DNA of 64,000 nt, from contig CM030716.1 of the NCBI GenBank assembly GCA_017979445.1, forward strand, positions 12,933,611 through 12,997,610, read 5' to 3'. This document shows, piece by piece, positions 11,226 to 61,055 of the stretch. The notes under the pieces were generated by a model. It made no database searches. It was not told where the DNA came from and saw only the letters and a list, made by a program, of their open reading frames with translations. Source of the stretch: Akebia trifoliata. Taxonomy: Eukaryota > Streptophyta > Magnoliopsida > Ranunculales > Lardizabalaceae. Made by a program: the position numbers and the translations under genes. Positions within the stretch are counted from its first letter, which is position 1, and every line of letters starts with the position of its first letter.

Positions 11226-11243
11226 GCTGCCCTTCTTTGCAGG
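11226..11243 (-). other. Polypurine tract of the retrotransposon
   Basis: On the minus strand the bases directly before the 3' LTR read GCAAAGAAGGGCAGC, a purine-rich run abutting the TG of the LTR. Its position fixes the 3' end of the element at the low-coordinate side, in agreement with the PBS at 26511-26528. Confidence 0.7.
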
Positions 11244-14135
11244 AATTGCGTGCAAAGAACTGTAAAGAATAGATTAAACCCCTATTTGCACGGGCAAGAG
11301 AACTTTGTAAAACACGACTTCGAATTTCGGATTAAATTGATGAATTTTGTGGACAATGGCGCCTCAAGCACGGGGTCTAACAGAGTTTTGCCTTATTAAT
11401 TTCTTGATCTCGATGGCGTGGAGCTCGTGTGAGATCTTGGATTTGATGAAAATTTGATGAGTTTTTAAATCCGACTATTTTTTCGATCGTGTTTTGACAA
11501 ATCAGAGTTGAGTGCAACTCGAAAAGGTTTTTGAAATTTTTTTTTCTTCGTTGCCTTCTTTTGTTGATCTTGCTCTGTTTCTATCATAAGCTAACCCTCT
11601 CAATTCATGCATTTTCCTTTGATACCTTTGATCCTTTCAACGGTGCAAGCAGTGAGGTTGTTAGCAGTCGCCACAAATCCAAGAGAAAGTTTTGCAGTTG
11701 GAACTGAATCGACCAAGACCTGTTGCATCGGTGCTACTCTCTTGCAGTATCAACATACTCTTTCACACTTCTTGATTTATTATCACACCAATATCTCTAG
11801 CTGGCATGTTACTAGTCATAACACTTGCCAGGCGTTCGCACTATCAATCTAAGGTAGCAACTCATCACTTTGTTCCCAATCCAAGGTCAGAGTTAATCAG
11901 TATTCTATATGTACTGTGAACTGCTTTGTCATCCACTTCTATATGTTCGACCCATATGACCTCGGAGTGACCATTTGGCATTTCTTGGATTAACCACCCT
12001 GATGGCCTTCTTCGACACCTTAATATCGGGCTAGGACACAAATGATCCAAGGAAACATCGACCACCATTCAAATCCCCTCGGCATGTTGTTTACAATACC
12101 TTACAAAGAAATTTTCTCAAATCAGAACCAGAGGTGAAGGGACTTGAAATTCTGCTGTCATCACTTGAAGGGCTCCATTGTAGTTTTCTGCTACGCTTGT
12201 TGGTACGACCTCAAGAGTCATTGCTCTTGAAACAATGCTAGAAAGTACGGTGGACTACTGATTCACATCCATAAGGATCTCAACAAGGTTAATGTGATTC
12301 ATGATAACAAAGGCCGTTTCTCGATAAGCTTCTGACTTCAATCCAAATGGTTTTAGTCCAATTCCCCTCGGGAATGTTTACATGTACTCATCTTCACTTA
12401 GAATCTCATAAGTATGATCAAGACTATGTATTCACAATGGTTTCCTTAGTTGGACCATTCTTATAAACTCTTTCATTACTGCAACTACGAGCTCGATGAT
12501 CAATGGTTTATTTGCCTCAGTTAGCCCGGAGAGTAATCTTAGAAGGGGCTCGCTCGGGGTCCCTGCTTCGATGCCTTTTGCGTCTTGTCTAGTGAGTCAT
12601 GATGCTTCGGACGCTGAAAAATTGATGATGAGTCGGGCTGCCTGGATCCGTGCTTTGTAGGAATGCCTTGACTCTTTTTTTCATGATGTTTGATTGATTA
12701 CGTTGTATTAACTCTTTTTGTATTTTCTTTTCATTACAAAATGTTGAAAGATTAATGCAAAGAAAATAGGTTTTGTACTTACTTGGCCTCAGGTGTATCT
12801 AATGCTTTAAAAACTTGAAATTTGAATAAGTCCTAGAATCTTCATCACCGGCCAAAATAGTAGTTTTTCTTTTTTTGAAATTTTATGAAATATCTTTATC
12901 AAATGAGTACGATAAATTCAAAGTTTGTAAAACTTTTGGTTGCGACGATCTTGGTATTTTTGCCAATCATAGAGGATATAAACGTCAATTACTCTTTTGA
13001 TTCCTTTAGAGTCATTCCCAGTGCCATGGTATTGGAAGACTATTTTGGGTCTCGGGATTTTAGAAAGATTTTGTCGTTCACAATTTATACTCTTGCGGGC
13101 TAGGAGTTGTTTTTTTTATTTTTTTATTTTTTATTTTTATTTTTTTTTAACCTTTATTGCCCCTGATGCCAATTACGATTTTCATCAGACCCGGTTTTCA
13201 CATTTTTACGCATCGACGTCTTTTTGGGATTTTCATCGTGCTGGTGGCTTTAATCTTACCATAGTCTGATTCTTTTACTCATAGCGCCCTTTCAGGTTTT
13301 CACTATGCCCTTTCAGACCATGCTTGTATTTTTTTAGATTTTTCATTACAATTATTCTTGGAGTCTCTGTGTCTTAGTGGCTTGGTGACTTAAGTTGAGC
13401 TGCAAGATCGATTACTCTACTCTTGTAGTGGCACTTTTTCTTGAGTAATAGATCTAGATTCCCCTCTCGAGCTTGCTAACGACTATTCGTGGTTCGACAA
13501 CTCAAGTTGAACCGCGAGATCGACTACTTTACACTTCGAGTACTTTTTTTTTTCGAATATCCGATCTGGATTCCCTTCTCAAGTCTTCCAACGACTAACA
13601 AGACTTTGAGGTCCGGACCAAGTTGCAAGATCATTGGTGCTGCCACTGTCATTATGTTGTCTTAGAGCATTTCCTGATCAAAAAGGACTTTAAGTAGGAC
13701 AAAATGTTGGCTTAGGCTTATGGTAGTGGAAGGTTACAAAAAGGTTAAGGTCTGGGTCTTAGTTTATCTAAAGTGGAATAAACATGGGGTTCGTCTATTT
13801 TTGTTTCGGAAAAGTGATCTATGTCTCCTCCCAGCATCTCTCGAACTTATTTAGGTTGGAGATTTGGGTCGAGCCAAGATCAAGTGTTCGAGTTTTTGAC
13901 TTTCTTGATTTTTTTGTATTTTTAGCCGTTCACAGTTTATCCTCATGCGGGCTAGGAGTATTTTTGATGCTTTTGATTTTTCTATTTCTTTCTGATCTTT
14001 TTTTTTTTTTTGTAGTTGTTGACTTACCCCAGTCTTAGGTTAAGAAATGAACGTGATGGCTCAAAAGGGTTGACTAGGGTGTGATGGTTTGTTTGGGATA
14101 ACAAAAATGACCTTTCGTCATCTCAAGGTCAGGTC
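11244..14135 (-). other. 3' untranslated internal region of the retrotransposon
   Basis: About 2.9 kb between the integrase stop and the PPT with no credible ORF. It contains T-rich runs and internal imperfect duplications: the segment around 13385-13480 resembles 13490-13610 (shared AAGTTGA, GCAAGATCGA and GGATTCCCTTCTC-like blocks), and GCGGGCTAGGAGT occurs near 13095 and 13948. The portion nearest the LTR (to 12071) recurs at 28704-29550. Confidence 0.7.
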
Positions 14136-21889: not shown

Positions 21890-22935
21890 ACATTAACGCG
21901 AAGTTGGCATCAACACGGGACTGGCAAAATATTTTGAAAAAGAATTACATCAGCACGGAGCTGGCATCGACACAGAGTCGGTAAAATTAAAAACGATTTC
22001 ATCAGCACGGAGCTGGCATCGACACGGAGTCGGTAAAATTTAAAAGCGATTTCATCAGCACGGAGCTGGCATCGACACGGAGTCGGTAAAATTTAAAAGC
22101 GATTTCATCCGAACAGAGCTGGCATCGACACGGAGTCGGTAAAATTAAAATGATTACATCAATACGGAGCTGGCATCGACACGAAGTCGGTAAAATTAAA
22201 AAGATTTCATCAGCACGGAGCTGGCATCGACACGGAGTCGGTAAAATTTAAAAATGATTTCATCAGCACGGAGCTGGCATCGACACGGAGTCGATAAAAT
22301 TAAAAATGATTTTATCAGCATGGAGCTGGCATCGACACGGAGTCGGTAAACTTAAAAATGATTACATCAGCATGGAGCTAGCATCGACACGAAGTCGGTA
22401 AAATTAAAAAGATTTCATCAGCACGGAGCTGGCATCGACACGGAGTCGATAAAATTTGAAAACGATTTCATTAGTACGGAGCTGGCATATACATGGAGTC
22501 GGTAAAATTTTTTTTAAAAATGATTACATTAGCACAGAGCTGGCATCGACACGGAGTTGGTAAAATTTTAAAAACGATTTCATCAGCACGAAGCTGGCAT
22601 CGACACGGAGTCGGTAAACTTAAAAATGATTACATCAGCACGGATCTGGCATCGACACGGAGTCGGTAAAATTAAAAAGATTTCATCAGCACGGAGTTGG
22701 CATCGACACGGAGTCGATAAAATTTAAAAACGATTTCATCAGCACGGAGCACGGAGTCGGTAAATTTTTTTTAAAAATGATTACATCAGCACAGAGCTGG
22801 CATCGACACGGAGTCGGTAAAATTTTAAAAACGATTTCATCAGCACGGAGCTGGCATCGACACGGAGTCGGTAAAATTTAAAAATGATTACATCAGCACG
22901 GAGCTGGCATCGACACGGAGTCGGTAAGACATTTT
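21890..22935. repeat. Minisatellite, ~53-bp unit, about 19 copies
   Basis: Tandem units built around GCACGGAGCTGGCATCGACA followed by CGGAGTCGGTAAAATT and an A/T spacer. Each unit contains two diverged 17-bp halves (TCAGCACGGAGCTGGCA and TCGACACGGAGTCGGTA), so the array is probably an older short repeat doubled. Units vary in A-tract length; one near 22750 lacks a central piece. It lies between ORF1 and gag within the retrotransposon. Tandem repeats in noncoding parts of Tat/Ogre elements are known; it is not a CRISPR because the spacers are related A/T runs. Confidence 0.92.
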
Positions 22936-23026
22936 GAAAAAGAAGATTACATTTTGAATTTTGTACACCAACCCATTAAACAATTCATTTATGCCATGAT
23001 TATCCACAAATAAATTGAAAGAAATT

Positions 23027-26531: not shown

Positions 26532-28703
26532 TGTAGACACGTGATTTCGTCATTACGATGACCACATCTACAATGGTTTGGAGTCACCACCATTCATTTT
26601 TGTAAGTGGGTGTGAATGGTCACCCGATGTGCATTTTTTTTAGAAAATGTGACATTTTTGGTATTTGGTGACTCTCGATGGATAAAGATGAATCAACCCT
26701 TGAGATTCGGGTAAGCGGCTCGGTTGGAGAAAAGGAAAGGTGTTAGGCACCCTTTTCTCCCCACTACATAGTGGTAACCTCAACTCAACTCGGTCATTTT
26801 GATTAAAAAAATACGAAAAACGATGTGCCACGTGTTGTGCATTTGTACCCTAGATAGGGGTTCATTTTCGGCTTGATCATAGGGTCATTCCATTGATGGA
26901 AATGACCCTTATAGACCTTTAGCCTTGGGGTCCATTCATCTTAAAAAATAAAATGAAGGGGAGAGGGTGATAGAAGAGGGAGGAGGAGAGGGTGTAGAAG
27001 AGAGAGGAGGGGGGGGATTGCCTTGAACCCACCTTGTATCTTCTTTCTTCTTTTCTTCTTCTTGAGTCCTTAGTATTTTATGAAAATACAATTCTTGTAT
27101 GGTTGAAGGAGTAGAGAAGAGATGATGAGAGAGATGAGTGGAGTATAATATTTTTTTTTTGTATATGAGACTTGAGGAGGATTGGTGATGGTTTGTTAGT
27201 AGTGAGAGTTGGAGAGAATTTTTGTAGTGAAAGTTGGGGGGGGCATTTTGGAAAGAGGAGGAAGGTATTTATAGATGTTGAGGAGTTATTTTAGGGATAT
27301 AATGAGGTGAAGTGAAGAAAAAGAATACAATGGTTATGAGTTTAAGAGAGAAATGGGTGTAATTTAGAGGAGATTTGAGGGTATTTAGCTAAGGGGGGTT
27401 AAATGGGTGAGTTTTGACCTAAATGGTCTGGATCCTACCCAACCCATTTGGGTGGAGTGTTTGGTGAGGTGAGTTTAAGATGGTGGTTGTGATTAAATGG
27501 TATTTGATTTAAGAGAATGGAGGATTTAAAGAGGTGGTTGATGATATTTTGGGAGGGTGAGGGAGATATGCCATGTGTCAAAGTGGGTGAAAATGAAGGG
27601 TTGATATATGTTAATGGGAGAGGTTGAGTGTTTGACTTGAGAGGATGGTATAGATTTAGGTTGTAGATGTAAGTTTTGTAGGGAATGAAGAGGGTAGATT
27701 AGGAGAGGTATAGGTTAGGGGTGTGGGTAGATGTGTTTGATTTGAGAGAAAATGTGATGGGTTGATGTGTGGGTAGATGGGATTTAAAGCAAATTAATGG
27801 GGTAGGTAGTTGGGTGAGGGAGGTGAGATGGGGTGGGATGACATTTGTCATCTTTGATGATCAAGATGGTGATTGGTTGATGTGGGTAGTGGTTGATGGG
27901 TTAGGGTTGTGGGTTTGATATGAATTGGATATGATTTGGGCTTAGGGGCTTTGGAGTGTTTTGGGCTTGGGTTATGAAATGGTTTTGGATTTTAGGAATT
28001 GGTTGGGGGTTATTTTGGAATGGATTTTGAGGGTGTAGGTTGGTTTTAGATTTTTAGGTGATGTGAGATTGAGTTTAGGTTAGGGGGAGGTGAGAAAAAT
28101 GGATTTTGAAAATTGAGGGCTTGTGGGCCTTAGGTGGGTCTATGGTTTTTGAGGATTCGGAGGCGGAGCGGTGGTAGTAGAGAAGGGGTAGGCTTCCCAA
28201 GTCTCATATTTTTTAATTTATTAAATTTTTTGTGATTTTTGAATTTATTGAATTAATCAAAATGCCACGTGTTGGCAAATTGGGCTTTTTAGGGCCGTTG
28301 GAGAATTTCATCGAAAATTTGGCATTTTTGGTTTTGGAAGCGGAGTGGTGAATATTGGGAAAGCGTAAGGTAGGCCGAGTCTTTTTGGGGGGCCTCCTAA
28401 ACCATTGAGAAGTCTTAGGGGCCTCGGTTTGGTCAAAATGTCACTTTTAACTCTTTGGGCCTTGAGGCCCGTTAGCTTACTTTGTTGAAAATCGATATTT
28501 TGAATGGAGCGCGGTAGATGGGAGCATGCCAATCTTTTTGGTGGACCTACTAACCCATTGAGAGGTGTTAGAGGCTTTGATTTGTCAAAAAAAGTCATAT
28601 TTCGATTGATTTGGGCTGTTGAGGCCCGTTGGGAATTTTTATTGAAAAGTCTGTATTTTTGGGCCCTTTCGAGTTTGGGCCCGTTCAAATTGGGGTGTCT
28701 ACA
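26532..28703 (-). repeat. 5' LTR of the Tat/Ogre-type element
   Basis: A 2172-bp copy of the LTR at 9048-11225 with the same ends (TGTAGACACG and GTGTCTACA). It is shared between the complete element on its left and the mostly deleted element on its right, because internal sequence adjoins it on both sides. Confidence 0.92.
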
Positions 28704-29550
28704 GCTGCCCTTCTTTGCAGGAATTGCGTGCAAAGAACTGTAAAGAATAGATTAAACCCCTATTTGCACGGGCAAGAGAACTTTGTAAAACACGACTTCG
28801 AATTTCGGATTAAATTGATGAATTTTGTGGACAATGGCGCCTCAAGCACGGGGTCTAACAGAGTTTTGCCTTATTAATTTCTTGATCTCGATGGCGTGGA
28901 GCTCGTGTGAGATCTTGGATTTGATGAAAATTTGATGAGTTTTTAAATCCGACTATTTTTTCGATCGTGTTTTGACAAATCAGAGTTGAGTGCAACTCGA
29001 AAAGGTTTTTGAAATTTTTTTTTTCTTCGTTGCCTTCTTTTGTTGATCTTGCTCTGTTTCTATCATAAGCTAACCCTCTCAATTCATGCATTTTCCTTTG
29101 ATACCTTTGATCCTTTCAACGGTGCAAGCAGTGAGGTTGTTAGCAGTCGCCACAAATCCAAGAGAAAGTTTTGCAGTTGGAACTGAATCGACCAAGACCT
29201 GTTGCATCGGTGCTACTCTCTTGCAGTATCAACATACTCTTTCACACTTCTTGATTTATTATCACACCAATATCTCTAGCTGGCATGTTACTAGTCATAA
29301 CACTTGCCAGGCGTTCGCACTATCAATCTAAGGTAGCAACTCATCACTTTGTTCCCAATCCAAGGTCAGAGTTAATCAGTATTCTATATGTACTGTGAAC
29401 TGCTTTGTCATCCACTTCTATATGTTCGACCCATATGACCTCGGAGTGACCATTTGGCATTTCTTAGATTAACCACCCTGATGGCCTTCTTCGACACCTT
29501 AATATCGGGCTAGGACACAAATGATCCAAGGAAACATCGACCACCATTCA
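28704..29550 (-). repeat. Copy of the 3' internal region next to the shared LTR
   Basis: Matches 11226-12071 almost base for base, including the PPT directly after the LTR end. It then stops at ACCACCATTCA and jumps into LTR sequence. It is the remnant of a second element that shared the LTR at 26532-28703. Confidence 0.9.
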
Positions 29551-43308: not shown

Positions 43309-44660
43309 TGTTAGTTTCATATTTTTTCAATCTCGAGACTTAGTTGTGTGTCAGACTAATTTGCATTTGAAGACGAGTGAAGACTCCGGTAAAGTCGTTC
43401 ACCTCAAGCACCTCAACAAAACATTCCACATGTGTGTGCAAGTAGCCTAAAATGTAGTGAGACCACCTAGACCGTTACCCAACACCCACGTAATATGTAG
43501 GTCTTCTTAGAATATTGAAAACATTGAGTTCCACAATCCGTTATTCACTGGACTCTCTAGGAACCAATAATGGTTTTCCAGGGGTGCCAAAAGTGCTCCT
43601 TGGATGCCTCTCAACATCAACTAGACTCCCTAGACATCTTGGTGATAGTTTGGGGGATTCATATTGGTAATATCTACAATATCCTCGAATCGTTTGTTGA
43701 TTAGACCTTTTGGGAGTAAAATATGCCCAAAATAGGCAATTTTGATGTTCCGGGTGCCGCTGGCAACAAGCAGACCAATTAATGTCATTTCCACTTTGCG
43801 TTCCGGGCACCACTAGAAAGTAGCATTGTGCCATCGATAGAGAGTTCACTTTGAACTCTAACTTGAAAACTATAGTCGTTGGAGTTCCCGATGCCACCCA
43901 GAAATGTTTGGGTGCCACGTAGAAATGTCTAGGTGCTGCTGCGAGATGACTATTAGCTCACAAATACCTTTATAACTCAGCCCCTTGGCCCATTTGTTGG
44001 TTGATCAAATCCTTAAGAACTTGCTCCCAAACTTCCCTCATTTCTTGGAGTCCTCTCATGTCATTGAAACCATGGATTGATTGGAGACCATCCTCAACCC
44101 CATGTCCCTCTAGTTTGATCCACATTCATTTCACCCTTATTCACCCTTCCACACACATTGGCACATCATTTTGAGCAAGAAACTGAAGTTGATGAGGCTA
44201 CGTACAAGGAACAAAAGTTTACGGATGAAGTGAACAACAAGGACTCGAAGATCTCAAGCATCAAGTAGGAAAATCCTTGTGTTGAATCAAGTCTTTGTAA
44301 GTTTTGTGTTTTCATTTTTACAAAACCTTCTAGAAGATGTTTCTTGGTTTTGCCTTGTGAAAAACTAAGCACTTGCTAGAGTCGAGGACTCTCATCAAGT
44401 TTCAATGTTCAAAGTTACTCCTAAGGACAAAACTTAGAGTTAGAGTAAGGTGTTATCTCTTTCAAACAAGAAGGTAACGGAATTTAACCTAGGAAAAAAT
44501 TTCATGTACGGTTTGAGGTGAATTGAAAACCTCATTGATTAGTGAACACCAAAACCTTTGTGAAGGTGACCTTGGGAGTGGACGTAGGCACATTGCTGGA
44601 CCACTAAAATTTTTATATCTCTTGTTTCATTTACATTTCAGTCATATTTACACTTGAATG
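43309..44660 (+). repeat. Putative LTR (copia-like) at the start of the right repeat copy
   Basis: TGTTAG follows a purine tract, and near 44577 there is the GTGGACGTAGGCACATTGCT motif that many plant LTRs carry near the R-U5 boundary. The 3' boundary is uncertain, and I do not see a standard tRNA-Met PBS after it. The equivalent part of the left copy begins at window position 1. Confidence 0.4.
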
Positions 44661-47353
44661 GTTTGCATGCCATGAATGTATGTATGCCATGAATGACATG
44701 AGTTGAATACATAAATTTTAAGTGTAATTTGGTTTATTTTCTAACTAGAGACCTAGTATAAAATCGAGGGAATAAACCTAAGTGATCGCATAGTTAAATT
44801 AACACACCTAGGTGAATTTAAATAATTAGAAAGAATTTTTAAATTATCCTATTCATCCTACTCTAGGGCTAGACAAGGTACAAAGTACACAATTTCATGA
44901 TTTTCAATCAATTTATTCAAATTATATAAAATTTAGATTTTCGATTTTCAATCGGTTTATTCAAACCGTATAAAATTCAGATTTTTTTGATTTTCAATTT
45001 TTTTCACAATCATGTAAAATTTTGAATAACTATTGCTTTTGTTAAATCTTATAAAATTTCTAATTTGGGATTATCAATAATTTTTCATTAAACCTTTAGT
45101 TTCTTGATTCCCAATTATGGTTATATTACGATGTTGCCATGTGAGTATTGTTTTAAAGCATGTTACTTATTAAGTTTCCATAGTTGTGACCCTATACTTA
45201 TAAACGTTTATGGAGTATTATTATATCGGCATCTTTTGAAGAATAAACTTAAACTTTAGTAAATATTATTGCCCAATATACATATACATGAATTTTATTA
45301 ATTTTGTAACTGTAAAAGTAGCATAAATTAGTAAAATTTATGAAATATCAAATTGTATTAAATTTTGGTTATTAGGGTGACAATAAAGAACAATAATATT
45401 TATAACGGTAGACTGAATTAGGTAAATCGGATTAGCCCAAAGGAGAATTTCATTCAACTAATTGGAGTCTGGGTAAGGCAATAAATTTACATGAATTTTG
45501 ACAGACGTTGGATTGGATACCTAAAGGTAATCAAAGTCACTAAATAAATTATGTAAATTATATTAGTCTTGCAAGATATTTATTTTTATTACCCTTACAA
45601 ATGAGTGAACATTCAATATATCTAGTTTTAACCCAAAGGATAAATTTTAGGTGATATTGATAAATTTATTAAATAAAACTCAAAGAACTTATTAAAACAT
45701 TATCTTTATCTAATTCTTCTACCATTCCGATCCTTATTAGATCTAATTTTTTGAAATTGTATGAACACGTCCAATTCACTCTGGGCATTCAAGATCTTGA
45801 CCTAATACTTATTTATACGAAGCTTACAGATCTCATTGAAGATAGTACGACATCAAGACATTCCTATCCCAGAATGATAGTGCATTAGAGTATCTAAGGG
45901 TTGCGTAAGAAAAATTCAAATCTGTTGATAACTTATTCGTAAGTACTCTTATGGCTAAGTTGATAGACTATAAAGTACGATGAGGCCTATGGAATTCAAG
46001 ATCATATCCTTAACATGACTAACAAGACTATAACTTTAGTTTGAGTTTAGTCTCCTTTTGTTGACTGTAGGATAGTCTTAGATCGTTGTAGAGATCGATG
46101 GTCTCGATCGGGTGAGTTAGGTGCCTAGTACCTTTCGAAACTTATAATTTGATCCCTTTCTCTATGTCTTTCTCGTAGACTGATAAAAATTCTATTCAGA
46201 GTCATTTTATGATTCCTAGACCTAAACTAGGTATTAAAGTCCCAAAAACATTAGGATTTACATTTGCTTGAGAATCAACCGAGGCACTTTTAGAATCTCT
46301 TTTCACCAGATAATCGTATAACTTTAGATTGTTGGGGAATCCTTTTTGATAGGCAATGATTGTCGTAGGATCATCACAATTATCAATCTAAAGAAACTTT
46401 GTTTTGAATCGGTGAGTGTATCCTCTTATGGTCTATCCAATTTTATTCTTGAGGTAAAATAGAGAGTCTACCCCCTTTTATTGTTGTCGACTTCTCATGA
46501 GTTGTGCTATGATGCTCATGCAAAGACTAGAGAAATTGCTTATCGACCTTAGAGCAAGTCTATGGAACAATGTCAAGGCTGCTCTATATAAGCTCGACAT
46601 AGGAAAGCATCTTTCCCTTTTTCGAGTTCTATTACCTGCTTTTAATGGTAGAGATGTTCCATCGGATCAACAGATCCTTACAAATGGAGGTTCCTCAAAT
46701 CTTGGATTGCAAATTGAGCAAGTTGCTCAGTTGACTTTCCCTTTTCAAGTGTCACCAGAATGTTGAGTTCTTTCTTTTGTTTATTCAATGTAGAGTCTAT
46801 TTCATCTCGATTGATGAACTCACCATCATTTTGCCTTACTTCCAACTATTCTACTTCTCGGTGTTTTACATTTTTTACTCTATTTCTCTATCTTACTCTA
46901 CTTATAGAATTGGAACGTTGATGTTCTCTAGAGGTTGATTATTCTTTTCTCTTTATTGTGTACCATGATTCGAAGTATTGATTGCATCTCAAGGGTGATT
47001 TTCCCCCGGACCATTATGTTAAGTTTGTAGAGTTGCATTCTCTTGATGCAAAAATGCAACAGTTTCTTATTGCTCTTACATTTGGATTTGAACTCTTTGG
47101 AGTTTGTTCGTCGCATAAAGGTGTATCTTAATAGAACAAGAATTAATATAAAATTAAAATTACAAAACTAGTTTAGATTGGCAAGTAAAGTCGTTCCATT
47201 GAGGATTGGGAGAATGATTTTTCAGAGTTTAGAAAACCAAAGGAAAAAGTTTATGATTTTGAAGAAAAGTTAAATTTTATAGAAAATAATTAAAACTAAT
47301 TAAAATTAAGAAATACTTGCAATTTGAGAAAATATAAGGAGAATAAATCTATA
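43459..47353. repeat. Right copy of the 3.9-kb direct repeat
   Basis: Same sequence and orientation as 1-3912 with scattered substitutions and small indels. It includes an open frame at 46497-46766 (89 codons, central part NNVKAALYKLDIGKHLSLF) whose counterpart in the left copy (about 3090-3345) is interrupted. I do not recognise this protein. The match ends at about 47353. Confidence 0.85.
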
Positions 47354-50964: not shown

Positions 50965-51460
50965 GGGCAATGGTTTGGGAGGCCTACCAAGAGGACTCGG
51001 CCAACCCTCCGCTTTCCCAATATTCACCGCTCCACTTCCAAAACCAAAAACGCCAAATTTTCGATAAAGTTCACCAACGGGTCTAAAAAGTCTGATTTGC
51101 CAACACGTGACATTTTGATTAATTCAATAATTTCAAAATCTTAAAAAAATGGATAAAACTAAAAATATGAGACTTAGGACATCTATCACTTCCTCTACCT
51201 TCACCGCTCCGCTCCCGAATCTAATAACTCAAGCCCAATACACTAAAAAGCCCACAAGCCTTTATCCATATCCAATTCACATCCAACCCATAATCCTAAC
51301 CCACAAACCACTACCCACATCAACCAATCATCATCTTGATAATCAAATATGACACATGTCATCACCCTATCTCACCTCCATCATCCAACTACCTACCCTA
51401 TTAATTTCATCTACCCACACATCAACCCATCACCTTTTCTCTCAAATCAAACACATCAAT
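50965..51460 (+). repeat. Solo LTR of the Tat-type family, left part (U3-truncated)
   Basis: Reverse-complement match to the large element's LTR, e.g. the equivalents of 10790-10910 (TTTGCCAACACGTGxCATTTTG) and of the region near 10380. The first few hundred bases of the LTR are missing. It is interrupted at 51460 by the CACTA element and resumes at 59715. Confidence 0.85.
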
Positions 51461-51589
51461 CACTACGTGAAAATCCCAAATTTGTCTAAAAAAATTTGTT
51501 GGGCCCGGCCCGTCGAATTTTAAACCCAAAACTCCGCGGCCTGTGTACCACGTTTTTGGGTCGATCAAATTTGTCTAAAAACTCTCTGC

Positions 51590-52040
51590 CTCTCTCACTA
51601 TTTCTCTTTCTCTCTGCTTCTCTCTCACAGTCGATCTCTCTCTTTCTCTCTCACTGTTTATCTCTCTCTCTCTTTCTCTCTCAATCGATCGACCTCTCCA
51701 TCGAAGGTGAAGCACGATTCTTCCCGATGGAAATTTTGCGAAGAACTCTTTGTCTCCATTGTTGACGACGTTGCATCTCTTTCGATTGCACATCTCGAAA
51801 TCGAATAGATTTCAATCGCAGCCGCGCGAAGAAATCTCTATCTCCATTTCAGACGAAGTTGAATTTCTTTATAGTTGATCCGGACACTCCTCCATCACTA
51901 ACTTCCCTTTGAATTTCTTTATAGAAATCTCTATGTTCTTGGATTCTCTGCTAATCAAGGATCTAAAAGCTTGAATTTCACATATGGTAGATTCATGACG
52001 ATTTGTCTGGAAAAATTGAATTTCACATATAATCCTCAAG
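51590..52040 (+). promoter_or_regulatory. Pyrimidine-rich leader and possible 5' UTR exon of the CACTA element
   Basis: A long CT-rich stretch (51590-51690) is followed by unique sequence with a short uORF (ATG at 51727, 11 codons), ending CCTCAAG/GTATGT, a good plant splice donor at 52041. The second CACTA element has the same layout (donor near 62195). This looks like a promoter-proximal exon, but no transcript evidence is available. The RE-repeat minus-strand ORF at 51575-51793 is an artefact of the CT run. Confidence 0.45.
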
Positions 52041-54294
52041 GTATGTTCGAAATCTCTTTTTTCCTATTTGATTCATGTCTTCTAGGGTTTGTATCGTATA
52101 AATTGGATTGAGTTTCATTGAATTTTAGTAGAAAAATAGTTGAAATTTAGGTTTTGTAAGATTTTCTTATTTCAGATCTCAGTTTTGTATGATTCACGTT
52201 TTAGATTAGTTAAAAACATTATTAAAAAAAATTATGCCAAATTAGAGACTTAGAAAACGGATTGCCACTAATCTCAAAAATTTAGAACCTGTATATATTG
52301 TCACAATTGCCTAAATGATACCTCAATCATTCAGGTTTAAAATACAATAAAAGAATTTACTAATGAAAGACTTTGAAAATGGAAGGGCACAAAATTCTAC
52401 ATTTATCCATAATAAAAAAGCATCTTTTTGATATTTTAGAGTTCTTTGAATTTTGTGCTCTAAGATATATCCTTACCATTAGATTTTGTGTTTCAACAGT
52501 CAGGATTATGTGATCCTTAGAGTTTTGTTTTCTTGTTTCCATGGATCCCAAATCATCTCTTATTTTGGGGTGCAAATAGCAGCTCTCATTTTTTATCCTA
52601 CACTTGTGAGGAGTGGGTGTAGCTCAAGGTTGTAGGTGCTTTAGTTTTTAGTCTAATATCGGAAACCTATAAGAAAGGTGAAGAAAGTTCTGATGTATAA
52701 AAAAAGTATTGAAGAGAAGGTTTAAAACATACTTACATGGACAAGGTCAATGGACGATCAAGAAGGTCCATGGCCTACGTTAGCGACCTCCATAGCACTT
52801 TGGAGGGGTGCTCTAGAACTAATATTTCACCTATTCGTTTGAAATATGAAGTTGTATATGTACTAATGCATTCAAGATCGGTATTTCTTGACATCAACAA
52901 CATTTATCAATGATGTTTACTCTTTGAATGGATACTTCCTTTATTAACATGACATCCCACAAACCTGGGTAGTTTGCTTGCTCTCCATTTCAACATTGTT
53001 TGACTATGACACTCAAGTTCGTGCAGTTAGATTTTTTCTATTACTAATAATCCGATTTAAGTGCTGGAAAGGACTGGATGTCTTCTTATTGTTGTATTGT
53101 TTTGGGCATGCATATATATTTGCAAAGTGAGTGCCAATACTGTTTGTACAGAATCAAATATCTCAGTTTCACATTAGGAAATTGGTTGGAGACGTCCTGT
53201 CACTCTACAATACAGGCCTGCCCTTACAACGGTAGCCAAAGTATTTGCATAATGTTTAACAAAACTGGCAATTACCAAACTGATTGTTTCATCTTTTTCT
53301 CATTTCACAAGGGCAATCCTTGACTATTTGCAGGCAAGCTCTTGATTGGTATTGGATTGCAGCCATGGGCTTCCAACCAAAATCATAGGTCTAACACCAA
53401 CCTGTATGTATGTCAGTAGAGATAAATGGGAACAAGGTTTTTTGGTAGGCAAGCAGGTTAGTGGTAGGTAGCTATAAGAAGGATTTGGAACGCAGATCTT
53501 GTTTCAACTCCCATAGGCTTCATCTGTATAGTATGCATGTAAGGTGATGGGACATGGTTTCTATTTGCATACTAAAATTCTACACATCAAGTGAATGCCT
53601 GATTATTTATTAGAAGTTCTAGGAGTTCTATTCTTAAATTATTTATGCTGTAAATTCCAGCTACTTGGGACTTCCGTGTGCCCTTATTTTTGGGCTGCAT
53701 CACCATGCCGATCAAAGAACATTAGTCAAGGCAATGTAGATGGAGACATCGGGTAGGAAAGCATGTATGATACATGAGGTGATTCTTATCCCAATATTGG
53801 ATTTGGTAGCTGGAAATAAATTGGGCAGGCCACTTTTTTATACTCCCTTCTATCTCCCACTCCATGTATTTTCACAAATTTTTTTTTTTTTTTTCTATTT
53901 GGTATCTTTTTTTTTTTTCTTTTTCTTATTCTATTGCTTTGTTTATGTTGGCTTGTGACACAATTAAAGCATTCCAAAACAGATTCAAATATAAAATAAT
54001 ACCACCTACATAAAAAAGTTGTTCTATTGATTTGATTCATAAATATAATTTTGTAATATTTAGTACTCTGCAGTTTTTTGATTGATTGAAAATATGGGGT
54101 ATATGCCCCTCTATTTACTGCTATGCAGTTTTTCGATTGATTTGATTCATCCTTATATAGGCATATGCCCATTGGCATCCTTCAACACAATATCCATCAA
54201 TTCTAAGGGAAAATCTCTAGGTTCTAAGGAAACAAACCCAATAGAGGGGATCATTGTATTTTTCCACTAATTTGCATTTGATATGTACTTAATC
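52041..54294 (+). other. Internal CACTA sequence without recognised genes
   Basis: About 2.2 kb of AT-rich DNA. Possible exon-like pieces near 53150-53330 and 53673-53750 have acceptor-like AG contexts and short open frames, but I recognise no protein. Confidence 0.45.
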
Positions 54295-54381
54295 ATGGAA
54301 GTGTTCTCACTACCATTGTGTATACTCTTCGTCTTGTTAAGCCTTGAAGCAGTTAATGCAAATTGTGAACTTATAAAATAA
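54295..54381 (+). CDS. Small ORF with signal-peptide-like sequence
   Basis: 28 codons starting MEVFSLPLCILFVLLSLEA with an ANA-type cleavage site and a stop at 54379. It has the n-, h- and c-region layout of a secretory signal peptide, so it may be a captured first exon of a secreted or receptor protein, or chance. No match to a named family is claimed. Confidence 0.25.
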   Translation: MEVFSLPLCILFVLLSLEAVNANCELIK

Positions 54382-54589
54382 AATAGAAAAAGACAATTGT
54401 GAACTACTTTGGTCTTTCAAGATTGATTTTTTTTGTTTGGTGACAAAAACTTTTCTTGCAAATTTCATTTTTAATGAATGTGGCTTATCATATTACATGT
54501 ATTATTAGAATACAAATGCATTTATAATTTATTTCAATTTTTTTTTTTTGGGTGGAATGTGAACTATTGCTTTTTTATTTTCCTCGCAG

Positions 54590-56017
54590 AATCCCTCAAA
54601 GTCATGCTTGTTTGTGGTTCTGATTTACTTGAATCTTTTGGTATTCTTGGAGCATGGATTCGTGAACAGGTATATCTCAGAAAGAAAAAAAAAAAAAGGA
54701 ATCTTCCCTTGTTTTTCAATTGTGCTTCCCATTGTGTTCTTCCATGAACAGACTAGTTTCTTTGAACACTAATATGAACCAATCTGTAGACCTGGGATGT
54801 AGGACTCTGTCTATGACCAAATCAAGGAGATCCTTGCAACGAAAACAAAACAATAAATTAAGTGTTTTTCCTAATATCGTGTTTGAGAATGTCTTCCTTT
54901 TTCTTGAATAAGAAAAACAAAATTTTCTTTTTAAATGTCTCAACTAGTTCTGGGAAAGGGGGAATTCATCTTTGTTTTCCAAACTCAAACTTTATTTAGG
55001 ACCTTTAAGGCAGCTGGAAAAACTGATCAAATATCCCTCTATGGTTTTACAGGTTCGAACTATATGCAAAGATTATGGCATTGCCTGCATTCGTAGGGAA
55101 GGCAAAAACATTGAGAATGTCATATCTGCTGATGATATTTTGAATGAATATAAGGTAATAAGAATCTTTGGTGGTTCTAAATATTTTTTTTAAAGTGTAC
55201 TTTCATAAACAGCTAAATCTCATCATGGATGGGGCTTATACCCATAGGTCAGCTGGTTTGACAAAAAATGCAAAGCAACTTTGAGGTCATGGGTTCAAGT
55301 TCAGCTTAACAATAAAAACAAAAGAAAAAAAAACCATCATGGAGGTGGGTTTTCTATATGCAACACTCAGTGTATGTATGCCCCCTTGTCAATCTGGTTT
55401 TATTGACTAGTCACCGCATGGATTCAACTATGGTCCCAAAAGTTCCTTCAATTAAACTATCTGATTCATGAACATAATTTAGTAGTTGTAAATATTTTCA
55501 GTTCATCAACTATTCAAAAGCAAAACACACAAATGCACACTCACAAAGATGCAATTTTGATAAGAATATCCTTAATTCAATTAAGGGAAAGAGATTCTTC
55601 ATATATTTGATCTTACTTGATGTGCAATGGTCACATCCATCGTTTTCAGGTAGAGACAAAGAAAGAGCTAAATGATTTTTCGTATTAATTCCTTAAAGAA
55701 CTAATACCATTCAACATTTCATATCTGTTTATTTCGGAAGAGTAACATCAGAGTAACATCAAAGTTGTAGATGAACTTGTACCTAACCAGATCAGCTCGA
55801 CAAGAGTAAGGTAAATGATTTTTCGATTTATTCACAAAATACTAGAGATAACATGAACATGTTGATTAGTATAATAACATTGAAAGGGGAGCCTCTTTTT
55901 GTTAATCTTTTCAGGGAATGCATTTCAAGAGGGTTGTCAGTTAAATATCTTACTGCAGATGAAGTTATTGATTATATCAAGGAACAACACTTGTACTTCA
56001 ATACAAATGAAAAATGA
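54590..56017 (+). pseudogene. Captured NMNAT 3' exons (nicotinamide-mononucleotide adenylyltransferase)
   Basis: NMNAT makes NAD from NMN and ATP. Four exons with GT-AG sites: 54590-54669, 55053-55154, 55752-55810 and 55915-56017. Together they give one open frame of about 114 codons: VMLVCGSDLLESFG, WIREQVRTICKDYG, IRREGKNIENVI, DDILNEYK, IKVVDELVPNQISSTRVRE, VIDYIKEQHLY, ending in TGA. ISSTRVR is the family's ISSTxxR nucleotide-binding signature. The N-terminal half with the GxFNPxHxxH motif is absent, so the enzyme cannot work. Exon phases fit and there is no internal stop. The intron between exons two and three carries a SINE. Confidence 0.85.
55230..55334 (+). mobile_element. SINE inserted in the captured NMNAT intron
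   Basis: About 105 bp bounded by a perfect 9-bp target duplication CATCATGGA (55221-55229 and 55335-55343). It contains an A-box-like GGTCAGCTGGTTTGA, a B-box-like GGTCATGGGTTCAAGTTC and an A-rich tail, so it is tRNA-derived and in plus orientation. It is the youngest resolvable insertion here if it entered after gene capture; it may instead have been captured with the NMNAT intron. Confidence 0.8.
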
Positions 56018-56084
56018 TCACTTGAGTATTAAATTTGCACAATCTAACTGTACAATTAGCTGTTCTTAATATCATGATGTACAG

Positions 56085-56343
56085 TTCCCTCCAGATTCTT
56101 CACGTTCTCTTGCATTTGGTTCTGGATATCATAAAATCTATTGCTATGATCTTCGTAACACACGAACGCCTTTGTGCACATTAATTGGTCACAGTAAGAC
56201 TGAGTTATGTCAAGTTTTTAGACTCAAAGACTCTTGTTTTAACGTCCACGGCTAACACACTGAAGCTTTGGGATTTATCAGCATGCACATCGCGAGTACT
56301 TGACAATCCTCTCCAAACATTCACAGGCCACACAAATGTAAAG
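56085..56343 (+). pseudogene. Captured SPA/COP1-family WD40 exon
   Basis: SPA proteins work with COP1 in an E3 ubiquitin ligase complex that represses light signalling. The exon reads WD40 blade sequence: [20 protein letters not shown], then in a shifted frame [39 protein letters not shown] and TGHTNVK. TSRVLDNPLQTFTGHTNVK resembles SPA rather than COP1. Two nucleotides are missing after GGTCACAGTAAGACT near 56199, so the frame is broken. A donor-like site GTGCTC follows the exon. The rest of the protein is absent. Confidence 0.8.
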
Positions 56344-56531
56344 GTGCTCATCATATTGAATTAAGATTCTTGATTCTCATAGTGTAAATTTGTTTCTTCT
56401 ATGACTGTAGTTCAAGTTTGTTGCCAATGTACCTCTGTTAATTTGCTATATTTTTTAAACTTGTTGGAGGTTATGGTGACACGTATTTGTGCTCGATACT
56501 GGCGTGTGTTTTATATGTATTCTTCCAAAAG

Positions 56532-57618
56532 GCTGATAGCACAACTGCTGGGAATTACAATGATTTGATTTATGAAGTGTTTCTTCAGGTAAGTTTGAAT
56601 ATATATATTTCGATTAATATTTTGAGTAAGTTTTAGTCTTTTTGTTTAAATGGGAATTCTTTTTCTTGTTCAATAGAAATTTGATGCCGTCGTTGGAGAT
56701 ACAACCATTAGAGCCAACCGATCCCAATATGTAGACTTTACACTACCATATACAGAGTCTGGGGTATCAATGCTCGTGCCTATTAAAAACAATGGAAAGA
56801 AGAATGCATGGATTTTCTTGAAGCCTTTAAGCAGAAATCTTTGGTTAACAAGTGGTTCCTTCTTTATCTTCACTGGTTTTGTGATTTGGGTCCTTGAACA
56901 CCGGATCAACGAAGAATTTAGGGGGCCAGCAGCTTATCAGTTTGGCATGACCTTTTGGTTCTCCTTCTCTACACTTTTTTTGCACATAGTAATTCCTCAT
57001 ACATCTCTTTAAATTTACTTACTATTAGTTTCAATAGAGTGCAAGGACACCTTTTGAGGGCATTCGGTTCAAAAGAACCAAAGTCATGAAGGTTTCCTTT
57101 GACATAGTATAGTGTGCACTGGTTAAAAGACTTAGGCTGATGTGGTTGAGGTACAATATAACAATATCTAGAGGTCCAAACAGTATCTATTTTGTGATAA
57201 TTTCAATACAACTTTGTGATGGTGCAGGGGAGAAGGTGGTGAGCAACTTGGCTAGGTTTGTGCTGATCATATGGATTTTTGTAGTCCTCATACTTCCATC
57301 AAGTTACACAGCTAGCTTGACATCGTTTTTGACGGTTCAACAACTCCAACCAACCATCACTGATATCAAAGAGCTCCTAAAGAGATGCGAATCTGTTCAT
57401 TTGTGTTTGGGCTCTTGAAGCAGATGGGGTTTGATGAATCCAAGCTTAAGTCCTATAATTCTTCAGACGAGTTCAATCAAGCTTTATCAAAAGGAAGTAA
57501 AAAAGATGGCATTTCTGTAGTTTTTTATGAGGCCCCTTACGTAAAGCTCCTCCTTGCGAGATACTGTGCTAAGTATACGATGGTCGGACCTACGTACAAG
57601 ACTGACGGATTTGGTTTT
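56532..57618 (+). pseudogene. Captured glutamate receptor-like (GLR) exons
   Basis: Plant GLRs are ligand-gated cation channels of the plasma membrane. Exons: 56532-56588 (GNYNDLIYEVFLQ); 56677 to about 56990 (KFDAVVGDTTIRANRSQYVD, M1 segment WLTSGSFFIFTGFVIWVLEH); 57228-57411 (M3 with [20 protein letters not shown]); and about 57409-57618 ([34 protein letters not shown] before a GTAAGT donor). Damage: a 1-nt indel in the T-run near 56985, and a short deletion near 57405 that puts the last part in another frame. It covers the ligand-binding S1 end, pore region and part of S2; the N-terminal ATD and M4 are missing. Confidence 0.88.
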
Positions 57619-58065
57619 GTAAGTCTTTCCTGCTCTCTTTGGAATCATAATCACTGGGAAATACTAAATTGCTAATGTTCCAAATACAAGTATTGGGTGT
57701 TAACAATCTCCAATTACTTAATTGTTTTTTTTTTTTTTGAAGAAAATCCTCAAACAACTAATCTTTTTTATTATTATTATTATTATTTTTTATTGTGCAA
57801 TATTTTTTATAAATAACTTTCCGAGACTTTGTGATATTGACAGAAATGTCATTACACAACAACAATCAAGTAGTGACTTTTTTTTATAAACATTAGTAGA
57901 CTAATTGTGGTTTTGATACTTTTTAAGAAATTTTATGAAAAAACAAGGTATGTGAGGTTGCTAACACCAAATGCTTGTATAAGACATTAGCAATTCCCAT
58001 ATTTAAGTAAAGATGTATTGAAATCTTAGCTATGTTTCTTTCAATTTATATGTGTACACATTGAG
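57619..58065 (+). other. Internal CACTA DNA without gene evidence
   Basis: T-rich and TTA-repeat sequence (about 57724-57790) with no recognisable exon. Confidence 0.5.
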
Positions 58066-58318
58066 GTATAATTTTTCGACAAGCAAAGTGATGAGATGCA
58101 TCCACATTGGGCTATTATGTGTTCAAGAAGATGTTGCAGATAGGCCAACAATGGCAACTGTGGTTCTTATGCTCGGTAGCTATTCTGGCACTCTTTCCCA
58201 ACCTTTACCACCTACATTTTGCGTGCATGGTAGAATCAAGTCAAACATGCCCATGAGTGATTTAACACTGCCATCAACTATGAATGAGGTGACAAATACT
58301 GAGTTATACCCTCGATAA
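58066..58318 (+). pseudogene. Captured 3' exon of a cysteine-rich receptor-like kinase (CRK)
   Basis: The open frame [43 protein letters not shown] and ending TELYPR-stop is the C-terminal part of the kinase domain (subdomain XI arginine in ADRP) and tail of DUF26 receptor kinases. Only the last ~80 codons are present; ATP-binding and catalytic loops are missing, so it cannot be an active kinase. The natural stop codon is retained. Confidence 0.85.
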
Positions 58319-58689
58319 TCGTATTGATTTATTGGAAATTACTTATTTTCTTTAGACATTATTAACTAGGGCTTGTCATTGCCATTTATGGCAACAAGTA
58401 TGCTTGTGCTATTATTTACATTTGGGAGGTGTGAATATCATTTAAATCATATTGGATTATATGAGTGTTATTATCATATGCAAGAGTGTTCACAAATAAA
58501 ACTAGATGATCTTTTGAGACATTATTAAGTTTGGGTTAAGTAGCCAATGCAATCAGGTTATTTGAGAACATGTACACCTGTTAGGTATTCCTGTCAGTTT
58601 TTGTAAATTACCTTTTTTGATGCAATTGATGCCATTTTCAAAGGGAAGCAACTGAAATTATTATTTATTTAGTAACGGTTAAATAAATA

Positions 58690-58840
58690 CTAGAATTTTG
58701 ATATAGGAATGACTTTGGTTGGTTGAATGCTCTGATTATTTATGCTCTGGCTGCTTGTGGGCTTTTTCCAGCAGCCATTCAAGGATTATATTGGCGTTTA
58801 CCTGCAAACAACCTCGTATATATACATATATCATTTCATT
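58690..58840 (+). other. Unidentified hydrophobic exon-like segment
   Basis: After a possible acceptor (GATATAG near 58706) an open stretch reads FGWLNALIIYALAACGLFPA and QGLYWRLPANN, resembling a membrane segment with a short loop. Given the five neighbouring captures it may be a sixth host fragment, but I do not recognise the protein. Confidence 0.3.
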
Positions 58841-59108
58841 CTTCTTCTTCTTCTTTATTTATTATTTTCATTGTTCTTCTTTCAATAGGTTTATTATTGC
58901 TTAATTCGTTATTCAGGATTTCATTTGATAAACTAACTTGGAAAACAAATTTTATTTGCTGCTGGTAAATGGCACATAATTGTTATTGCAAACTTTGTTT
59001 CAATCAAACAGGTGGGGTACCTTGGTGTTTGTATTGCTTGAGATCCTATTTTGGTGTCTTTTTGCATCTTTACATTTTATTGGGTCTTGTGACCAGTTAA
59101 CATGGAGA

Positions 59109-59310
59109 GTATGGGTGGACAGCTAACATGGAGAGGACAATGCAGGCACAGGCTCTGAGGGACTCGAGCATGACTGGGTACATATCAAGCAAGAAGACAA
59201 TGGAGATCAATCCAGAGAATCCCATTATGGAGGAGCTGAGGAAGAGAGGTGATGCAGACAAGAATGAAGCTAGTCAAGGATCTGGTTCTACTGAATTTTC
59301 TTCGATTTAA
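59109..59310 (+). pseudogene. Captured HSP90 fragment
   Basis: HSP90 is an ATP-dependent chaperone. The frame reads [40 protein letters not shown] and RGDADKN, the C-terminal domain segment of cytosolic HSP90. After DKN the frame shifts: the next frame continues VKDLVLL, the expected sequence. The reading frame ends in TAA at 59308. Only about 60 residues are present and the upstream end is cut within a small duplicated GTTAACATGGAGAG-like block. Confidence 0.85.
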
Positions 59311-59714
59311 TGTAAAGTTGGGTCTATTTCAATTTCAAAATATTAATTCATGAATATTGATTTAGTTTTCTCTTCTTTGTTCTTCAGTCAATATGGATGC
59401 CCATCATATTCTTATTCTATGATTTTTCTTTTGTTTTTTATTTTTCTGATTTTTTTTATTATTATTTTGTTCATTGTGATTAGTGAATTAGAGGACCGTG
59501 CTATTGTTTGTTAAACCTCCAAATTCGACGGTCATACTCTATGAATTTTTTTTTTTTTTTTAAGCCCATTCTCCAATAATTTGATAGTCTAGGGCCATCA
59601 AAAAAAAAATTCTACAAGAGAATATTTGACGGGCATATTTGATGGGAGGGTCCGTCAAATTTCTCAAAATTTGACGGGCTAAGACCGTCAAATATGGGCT
59701 TTTTTCACATAGTG
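59311..59714 (+). repeat. Right subterminal region and TIR of the CACTA element
   Basis: Contains repeated ATTTGACGG, CCGTCAAAT and TTTGATGG-like motifs in both orientations (59520-59695) and the terminal inverted repeat ending CACATAGTG at 59714. Such subterminal repeats are typical transposase-binding sites in CACTA elements. Confidence 0.75.
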
Positions 59715-61055
59715 AACCCACACCCTCCCCTAACCTACTCTCATTACTCCCTATAAACCTCCATTCTCTCAAATCAAACACATCAACCCACACCCTCCCC
59801 TAACCTACCCTCATAATTTCCTAACCCCTATTCTCTCAAACCAAACACCTCCCCCTATCCTACTATCATCAATCCCAACTAACCAACCACCACCTTCCCC
59901 TAATCTACCATCTCTACAACCTAAACCTACACCCCCCTCAAACACTCATTCACTCCTATCAATTAATCTAAACCCTATCTCCACACATCATGTCATATGT
60001 CACCATCTCCCTCACCCTCCCAACCACCCTCTTACACCCTCCATTCTCTTAAATCAAACACCACTCAATCAATTAACCACCCTCTTAAACACCCATGATC
60101 TCACCTCACCAAATACTCCACCCAAATGGTTTGATAAGATCCAAACCATTTGGATCAAAACAAAACCCATTTACACTCATTACATAATTACCCCTCTCTC
60201 AACTCCTAATTTCATACCCCCCCCACCTTTAAAACATATATAAATACCTTCCTCCTCTTCTCAATTATATCCCTAAAATAACCCCCCAACATCTATAAAT
60301 ACCTTCCTCCTCTTCCTAAAAAAACCCCCAACTTTCACTACAAAAATTATCCCCCCAACTCTCACTACCAACCACTATTATCAATTCTCTCTCATCAATT
60401 CTCTCTTATTAACTCTATACCAAGTCTCAAGCAAAAAAGAACTCAAATCTCTACTCACCTCTCCTCTACTATTCTACCTTCACAATAATCTTTTAAAAAA
60501 ATATATACACACCCTCTCATAGTCTACTAAGGATTCAAGAAGAGATAAAAGAAGAAAGAAATAAGAGAAGAGAAGCTTCAAGGTGGGTTCAAGACTCCAT
60601 ACCTCCTCTTCTTTTTACCCTCTCCTCCTCCCTCTTCTATTATCCCCTCTCCTCTTTATTTATTTTAAATGGATTTAAGATGAGTGGATTTCAAGGCAAA
60701 TGATCCATTAGGATCATTTCTTTCAATGAGATGATCTTATGATCAAGCCGAAAGTAAATCCCTACTTAGGGTACAAATGCACACTTTATTTTTCACGTTT
60801 TCTTAAATCAAATGATCGAGTTGAATTGAGGTTACCGTCACTTGGCGGGGAGAAAATGGTACCTAACACCTTCCCTTTTCTCCAACCGAGCCGCTCACCC
60901 CGAATCTCAAGATTTGATCCGTACCTTATCCATCGAGAGTCACTAAACGTCAAAATGTCACTTTTTCAAAAAAATGCACATTGGGTGACCATTCACACCC
61001 ACTTAAAATATGAATGGTGGCGACTCCATCGTAATGACGAAACCACGTATCTACA
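59715..61055 (+). repeat. Solo LTR of the Tat-type family, right part
   Basis: Continues the LTR interrupted at 51460, in plus orientation. It includes a TATAAATACC-like region near 60238 and 60293, the AG-rich stretch (60535-60580), GATCAAGCCGAAAGTAAA near 60741 and the end GACGAAACCACGTATCTACA at 61055. A tandemly repeated ACCCACACCCTCCCCTAACC block occurs at 59716 and 59788. The ORF at 60739-61089 is an LTR shadow. Confidence 0.85.

What the first reader, a model, noticed from the sequence alone, without database searches (positions are those of the whole stretch)
51461..59714. Multi-gene Pack-CACTA: one transposon carrying pieces of five unrelated host genes, all in one orientation
Between clear CACTA ends lie NMNAT, SPA-type WD40, GLR, CRK and HSP90 fragments, each recognisable by family motifs and all on the plus strand. 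Introns and splice sites are kept, so capture was from genomic DNA. Gene capture by CACTA elements is known, but five sources in 3.5 kb with uniform orientation, next to a leader with a splice donor, is unusual and could produce new chimeric transcripts.
Basis: partly seen in the sequence, partly recalled or inferred. Interest (0 to 1): 0.87.

Follow-up and report, generated by a model that had tools for sequence, protein, structure and literature searches.

The report
Jumping gene carrying plant gene pieces
A plant cut-and-paste transposon has picked up pieces of at least five unrelated genes, all facing the same way, and has since spread to several other places in the genome; such elements are known, but a set of relatives that keep their cargo in one direction behind a shared front end is a useful new case.

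Summary
Window 51461-59714 is one non-autonomous CACTA element inserted in a repeat whose uninterrupted relatives lie in the same window. It carries NMNAT, SPA-type WD40, glutamate-receptor, CRK-kinase and HSP90 pieces, probably a sixth, all on the plus strand, with introns. The host assembly (653 Mb, unnamed) holds four more copies with the same cargo, >=99.2% identical, each with a perfect 3-bp target-site duplication, so it moved after capture. Longer source genes were found for NMNAT (C5) and GLR (C10); SPA relatives lie elsewhere. The element is a mosaic: its leader is shared with elements carrying Argonaute, myosin VIII, EMC4 and other pieces, its CRK-X-HSP90-tail with another set. In six-frame Pfam scans of seven distinct elements, 11 source genes lay on the sense strand and none on the other (7 to 0 above curated cut-offs; 9 to 0 in the five elements with the shared leader). 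The leader's splice donor is the same in 13 of 13 leaders. Reading frames are broken, so a protein product is unlikely. Multi-gene Pack-CACTAs are known (soybean Tgm-Express1 also carries five): a new member of a known kind. The sense bias and module sharing are the interesting part.

The parts
51461..59714 (+). complete non-autonomous CACTA element (Pack-CACTA), 8254 bp
   Evidence: ends and flanks; four further same-cargo copies
51461..51473 (+). 5' terminal inverted repeat CACTACGTGAAAA
59702..59714 (-). 3' terminal inverted repeat (reverse complement CACTATGTGAAAA)
51458..51460 (.). left target-site duplication AAT (right: AAC at 59715-59717)
   Evidence: perfect in the 11 other elements there with both ends seen, and in L030
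51461..52366 (+). leader shared by the family (shared on to 52979 with the L014 group and L018, to 53604 with L013)
52011..52260 (+). most conserved block of the leader (98-99% among 6 distinct elements), holding the splice donor CCTCAAG|GTATGT at 52040/52041
52584..53080 (+). about 497-bp segment missing from the C1, C2 and C4 copies, present in the window and C843 copies; most of it also in relatives
54148..56035 (+). NMNAT (nicotinamide mononucleotide adenylyltransferase) 3' part with introns; exons 54590-54669, 55053-55154, about 55741-55810, 55915-56017
   Evidence: 93.7% to C5:31.20 Mb over the whole stretch; that locus also holds an NMNAT N-terminal exon further up; PDB
56036..56078 (.). 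43-bp filler of unknown origin between NMNAT and SPA pieces
56079..56526 (+). SPA-type WD40 fragment, frame broken
   Evidence: 94% to C69:222470, 80% to SPA-type gene C11:47.44 Mb
56522..58051 (+). glutamate-receptor-like (GLR) fragment with introns
   Evidence: 91.5% to C10:4.549 Mb, which continues as GLR on both sides; Pfam, PDB
58052..58320 (+). cysteine-rich receptor-like kinase (CRK) 3' fragment
58701..59080 (+). probable sixth captured fragment, hydrophobic, gene unidentified
   Evidence: open reading frame, also in L025, L026, L027, partly in L030; no significant Pfam match
59081..59299 (+). HSP90 C-terminal-domain fragment, frame broken near its end
   Evidence: Pfam 1e-18
58047..59714 (+). 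3' module CRK-X-HSP90-tail, shared at 92-94% with other elements
59300..59714 (+). 3' terminal region shared by the family, with TTTGACGG/CCGTCAAA subterminal motifs

Best explanation
A non-autonomous CACTA transposon family with a conserved 0.9-1.5 kb leader (end, splice donor) and about 0.3-0.4 kb tail carries interchangeable interiors made of host gene pieces copied as genomic DNA. This element was assembled in steps (inferred): a tail module (CRK-X-HSP90), also present in other elements, was joined to a leader module and to NMNAT, SPA and GLR pieces, at joints with short micro-homology or filler (inferred: break repair or fusion of neighbouring insertions). After assembly it spread to at least five sites (shown), presumably cut and pasted by a transposase supplied in trans (inferred). 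The leader probably drives transcription and splices into the retained acceptors of the sense-oriented exons (inferred). The frames are broken, so the most likely product is non-coding or truncated chimeric RNA.
For: One insertion with collinear flanks. Five same-cargo copies, 99.2-99.5% alike, four with perfect target-site duplications; 119 of 120 biallelic differences private, a star-like burst. Longer source genes with introns on other contigs; 10 of 10 printed splice sites in the NMNAT and GLR pieces keep GT or AG as in the source. Micro-homology of about 3-4 bp at SPA/GLR and GLR/CRK (read by eye). Shared leader and tail with different cargo in L013, L014, L018, L021; tail module shared with L025 and partly L030. 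Leader donor identical in 13 of 13 leaders. 11 source genes sense, 0 antisense.
Against: No RNA data, so transcription and splicing are inferred. I ran no transposase search, and the end-pattern and leader-copy counts did not complete. The window copy's own target-site duplication is 2 of 3. Which repair route built the joints is not decided. No source gene was found for CRK or the sixth piece, and none was singled out among the intact HSP90 genes. The SPA source is unclear: its 3' part also matches at 92-99% at eight scattered places, so it may have come by way of another repeat. C843 is a small contig and could be a duplicate haplotype, though its flanks differ from the other four.
Confidence: 0.93

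Rival explanations
1. The uniform orientation is chance or detection bias, not a property of the family.
For: Small sample of top hits; the E threshold was set after seeing the results; four of the 11 lines (LRR, LOG-like, RecA-like, protein kinase) are below Pfam's own cut-off in the six-frame scans. L030 shares only the first 240 bp of the leader and L025's 5' end was not fetched. An antisense PPR capture is reported in a grapevine CACTA (PMC2528002, passages).
Against: Six-frame scans treated both strands alike: at E<=0.0025, 11 source genes sense and 0 antisense over seven elements and 21 frames per strand, two-sided coin p about 0.001. Stricter counts: 7 to 0 above curated cut-offs (p 0.016), 9 to 0 in the five elements with the shared leader (p 0.004). 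The only antisense line was V-SNARE 0.029, below its cut-off.
Confidence: 0.15
2. The cargo was inherited as one block from a chimeric host locus or pseudogene cluster, so capture happened once.
For: CRK-X-HSP90 is found together at L025 and L026, and four loci carry the SPA piece at 93-94% outside full copies.
Against: NMNAT and GLR match longer genes on C5 and C10; in the capped list no place outside the five copies held two of NMNAT, SPA and GLR; the CRK-X-HSP90 loci seen are tied to CACTA ends.
Confidence: 0.05
3. The captured exons are maintained as a new functional chimeric protein gene.
For: With parental splice sites the leader ATG reads in frame into NMNAT exon A, giving the same 85-residue fusion in 5 of 5 copies but for one residue in C2.
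Against: An 11-bp duplication that breaks the NMNAT frame is present in all five copies; SPA and HSP90 frames are broken; NMNAT and GLR exons are no more conserved than introns against the source, nor clearly among copies (10 of 1109 exon and 35 of 2280 intron positions vary). The in-frame join has a 1 in 3 chance, and three short upstream ATG frames precede it.
Confidence: 0.05

Closest known systems
Tgm-Express1 (soybean wp allele; Zabala and Vodkin 2007, PMC1947982)
   Same: CACTA element with fragments of five unrelated host genes, introns kept; the fragments were spliced as exons into transcripts of the gene that holds it, which implies a common sense orientation (passages seen; the word orientation does not occur there).
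   Different: There the transcripts start at the F3H promoter of the interrupted gene; here the element lies in a repeat, has its own leader donor, four further same-cargo copies, and relatives with other cargo. Sources differ.
Tpn1 family (Ipomoea nil, PMC5105172)
   Same: Non-autonomous CACTA elements with conserved ends and interiors replaced by captured host genes; chimeric transcripts known (passages seen).
   Different: Subterminal repeats of 122 and 104 bp; the strand of the cargo across Tpn1 was not stated in the passages I saw.
Pack-CACTA of Arabidopsis and maize (PMC8903248; Catoni 2019 not held)
   Same: TIRs, target-site duplications, several source loci per element (maize Pack-CACTAs hold the most); proposed gain by fusion of neighbouring insertions (passages seen).
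   Different: No strand rule for cargo was given in the passages seen; here a sense bias and sharing of a cargo-tail module are seen.
Cactavine-5 (grapevine, PMC2528002)
   Same: CACTA with captured coding sequence (passages seen).
   Different: Its PPR piece is antisense, so sense orientation is not a rule for all CACTA elements.

Membership tests
CACTA superfamily | ends beginning CACTA in inverted orientation | tested here: met
   CACTACGTG / CACTATGTG; small changes in one end of the C4a (L011) and C4b (L018) elements
CACTA superfamily | 3-bp target-site duplication | tested here: met
   window copy AAT/AAC only 2 of 3; perfect in the 11 other elements with both ends (a thirteenth row, C8b, had one end only) and in L030
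CACTA superfamily | subterminal repeats | tested here: met
   TTTGACGG/CCGTCAAA, 2+2 in the last 300 bp of the window copy; none of this motif in its first 300 bp
CACTA superfamily | mobilised by a CACTA transposase (own or in trans) | not tested
   no transposase search was run; no transposase family appeared in the six-frame scans of the cargo regions
Pack-CACTA | non-autonomous, carries host gene fragments | tested here: met
Pack-CACTA | multi-copy after capture | tested here: met
   five copies, same cargo, different flanks
Pack-CACTA | chimeric transcripts | not testable with these tools
   no RNA data at hand

The most novel reading that the evidence does not exclude
The family works as a mobile exon trap: a conserved leader supplies promoter, start codon and a phase-1 splice donor, and only elements whose captured exons are in sense (so that the transcript splices like a host gene) persist, while ready-made cargo modules are swapped between elements and between CACTA families.
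Probability: 0.3. Interest if true: 0.65.

Novelty: new member of a known kind. Interest (0 to 1): 0.42.

Why it matters
How cut-and-paste transposons acquire gene pieces, and whether orientation is set by the capture step or by later selection, is to my knowledge open. This family offers identified source genes, shared modules, young near-identical copies and an apparent strand rule in one genome, so both questions can be tested by a census and by RNA data.

Tried and rejected
A chance or mis-paired set of ends was rejected by the empty-site comparison. A single chimeric source locus was rejected for NMNAT, SPA and GLR. L026 first looked like a transposon-free CRK-X-HSP90 locus; its 3' side runs into inverted repeats and ...GACGTAGTG, so I read it by eye as another CACTA type with one end seen; this was not tested further. 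A coding function was set aside.

A first in-silico transcript used a donor one base too early; one search corrects it. The UDP-glycosyltransferase reading of a piece in L025 is by eye only; Pfam gave nothing. Argonaute, myosin, EMC4, EMG1 rest on Pfam; FVE/MSI4, LHCP-translocation-defect, SPA, CRK, LOG and lipoamide-dehydrogenase names are recalled from motifs. Pfam lines judged chance and not counted: DUF1885 (0.00029; 0.012), Lipase_GDSL_lke 0.0012 and Phytochelatin_C 0.016 on the NMNAT piece, SieB, p12I, Daxx and DUF7002. The NMNAT exon-C acceptor (CAG in the source, AAG here) and the second GLR donor are not among the ten splice sites counted. A pattern look for the leader donor in the first 2000 bases of L030 found none.

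Could not be done: copy number by end pattern CACTACGTGAAAATC and by the leader core, all busy; protein homologue search (database switched off). Papers on the strand of captured pieces were sought; no listing states a family-wide rule for CACTA, but only listings and the passages named were seen. Passages of PMC8978399 and PMC13317346 gave background only.
Full report
What is there. The 8254-bp stretch 51461-59714 begins CACTACGTGAAAA and ends, reversed, CACTATGTGAAAA. Its flanks (50968-51457 and 59913-61028) match, in the same order on the minus strand, a repeat present twice without this interruption in the window, near 9.1-10.9 kb and 26.6-28.4 kb, at 83-85% on the left and 72% on the right. 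The joined flanks align to those copies across the joint, but the first 200 bp on the right, rich in short repeats, align loosely. A neighbouring unit at 59768 reads CACATCAACCCACACC, so the likely target was AAC, now AAT on the left.

Copies. The window lies in an unnamed 653-Mb assembly, C13:12933611-12997610. Four further copies with the same cargo lie on C1, C2, C4 and the small contig C843, pairwise 99.2-99.5% identical, each between perfect 3-bp duplications (CTT, CAT, CAT, TGG) in unlike flanks. C1, C2 and C4 share a 497-bp deletion. Of 120 biallelic differences, 119 are private to one copy. That is about 0.3% per copy; at a recalled rate of 7e-9 per site per year this is a few hundred thousand years, a rough figure.

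Sources. NMNAT 54148-56035 matches a cluster at C5:31.20-31.28 Mb, 93.7% over 1.9 kb including introns; the matched locus also reads an NMNAT N-terminal exon about 3.3 kb further up. GLR 56522-58051 matches a cluster at C10:4.4-4.7 Mb, 91.5%, and that locus continues as GLR on both sides. SPA 56079-56526 matches four loci at 93-94% in whole or large part, one of which, C69, reads as a degraded longer SPA copy, and a longer SPA-type gene at C11:47.44 Mb at 80%. Its 3' part also matches eight scattered places at 92-99%, so the immediate SPA source is unclear. Exons and introns diverge alike from the sources (NMNAT exons 96.1-98.4%, introns 94.8-96.7%; GLR exons 93.0-96.4%, introns 92.9-98.2%), and 10 of 10 splice sites printed keep GT or AG. 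An HSP90 profile search finds intact genes and, among its 73 matches, 15 fragments that coincide with tail-module matches: the five same-cargo copies, L025, L026, L027, L030 and six more places.

Mosaic. The leader is shared with elements that carry other genes: L013 (Argonaute PAZ and linker), L014, L015, L016 and L019 (one cargo; only L014 scanned: ankyrin 0.00044, RecA-like 0.0022), L018 (LRR, myosin VIII, an inositol-phosphatase-like domain), L021 (EMC4, LOG-like 0.0025, WD40 0.037). The last 1.67 kb (CRK-X-HSP90-tail) is shared at 92-94% over its whole length with four loci, and from further inside with a fifth, outside the same-cargo copies. Of these L025 also carries EMG1. L031 is 97% like L025 in much of its cargo, and L032 and L033 share with them only the piece next to the tail module. 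L030, another complete element with duplication TTC/TTC, has a protein-kinase piece ahead of part of X and HSP90; it shares only the first 240 bp of the leader. L026 carries CRK-X-HSP90 (85%) beside what reads as an end of another CACTA type; L027 has X-HSP90 after a lipoamide-dehydrogenase-like piece (weak Pfam 0.042). Joints show micro-homology of about 3-4 bp at SPA/GLR and GLR/CRK and a 43-bp filler at NMNAT/SPA.

Orientation. Cargo regions of seven distinct elements (window, L013, L014, L018, L021, L025, L030) were scanned against Pfam in all six frames. At E<=0.0025 the sense strand gave 11 source genes: Argonaute, myosin, inositol-phosphatase-like, LRR, EMC4, LOG-like, EMG1, RecA-like, HSP90, GLR, protein kinase. 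The other strand gave none; its only line at E<=0.05 was V-SNARE 0.029. Seven of the 11 (Argonaute, myosin, inositol-phosphatase-like, EMC4, EMG1, HSP90, GLR) pass Pfam's cut-off in these scans. Nine of the 11 lie in the five elements with the shared leader; L025's 5' end was not fetched, so its strand is taken from its tail, and L030 has little of the leader. NMNAT, SPA, CRK and ankyrin, also sense, came from separate queries made mainly on the plus strand and are left out. The threshold was set after the results were seen. The seven are a subset: one search listed 49 matches to the leader stretch and one search listed 43 to the tail stretch, both capped lists.

Leader. The donor CCTCAAG|GTATGT is the same in 13 of 13 leaders, five of them in same-cargo copies. 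The block 52011-52260 is 98-99% alike among six distinct elements, against 68-97% in the leader before it. An ATG about 45 bases before the donor stays open to it in 13 of 13. Spliced with parental sites it would read into NMNAT for 85 residues in all five copies and stop just after an 11-bp duplication. This would fit truncated or non-coding RNA rather than a protein gene.

Known or new. Tgm-Express1 (five fragments, chimeric transcripts; PMC1947982, passages), Tpn1 (PMC5105172, passages) and maize Pack-CACTAs with several source loci (PMC8903248, passages) make the kind known. An antisense capture in grapevine (PMC2528002, passages) shows that sense orientation is not universal. The additions here are the strand bias across elements with one conserved leader, and a cargo-tail module shared between elements.

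Source-gene continuity was checked then.

Noticed in passing
window 9048-12071 and 26532-29550: Direct repeats of 3.0 kb, 98.8% identical and about 17.5 kb apart, like the ends of a large LTR element; a diverged relative on the minus strand (50968-51457 and 59913-61028) is where the CACTA element sits.
   Followed up: partly
window 1-3922 and 43459-47352: Duplicated stretch, 95.9% identical.
   Followed up: no
window 21891-22953: Dense tandem repeat seen in the self-comparison.
   Followed up: no
G000 C14:33280929, C16:16336553, C10:18448119, C8:18258060, C1:1599142, C14:30448807: Six places carry a different HSP90 piece (profile positions 284-337, open 62 aa), perhaps another captured fragment.
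   Followed up: no
window 56293-56526; G000 C7:847110, C15:23729367, C12:17110043, C9:18444109, C12:18723500, C12:10683368, C16:24090436, C14:23767134: The 3' part of the SPA piece matches eight scattered places at 92-99%, some closer than the longer SPA relatives; it may belong to another dispersed repeat.
   Followed up: no
L026 (C2:15402900-15406500): CRK-X-HSP90 beside what reads as a CACTA end of another type (reverse complement CACTACGTCATAATG), suggesting cargo exchange between CACTA families.
   Followed up: partly
window 53196-53604: Piece also found alone at C14, C2 and C1 at 94-96%, perhaps a separate small repeat inside the leader module.
   Followed up: no
L032, L033: Copies of the tail module's upstream piece with nested retrotransposon sequence, by reading of frames.
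   Followed up: no
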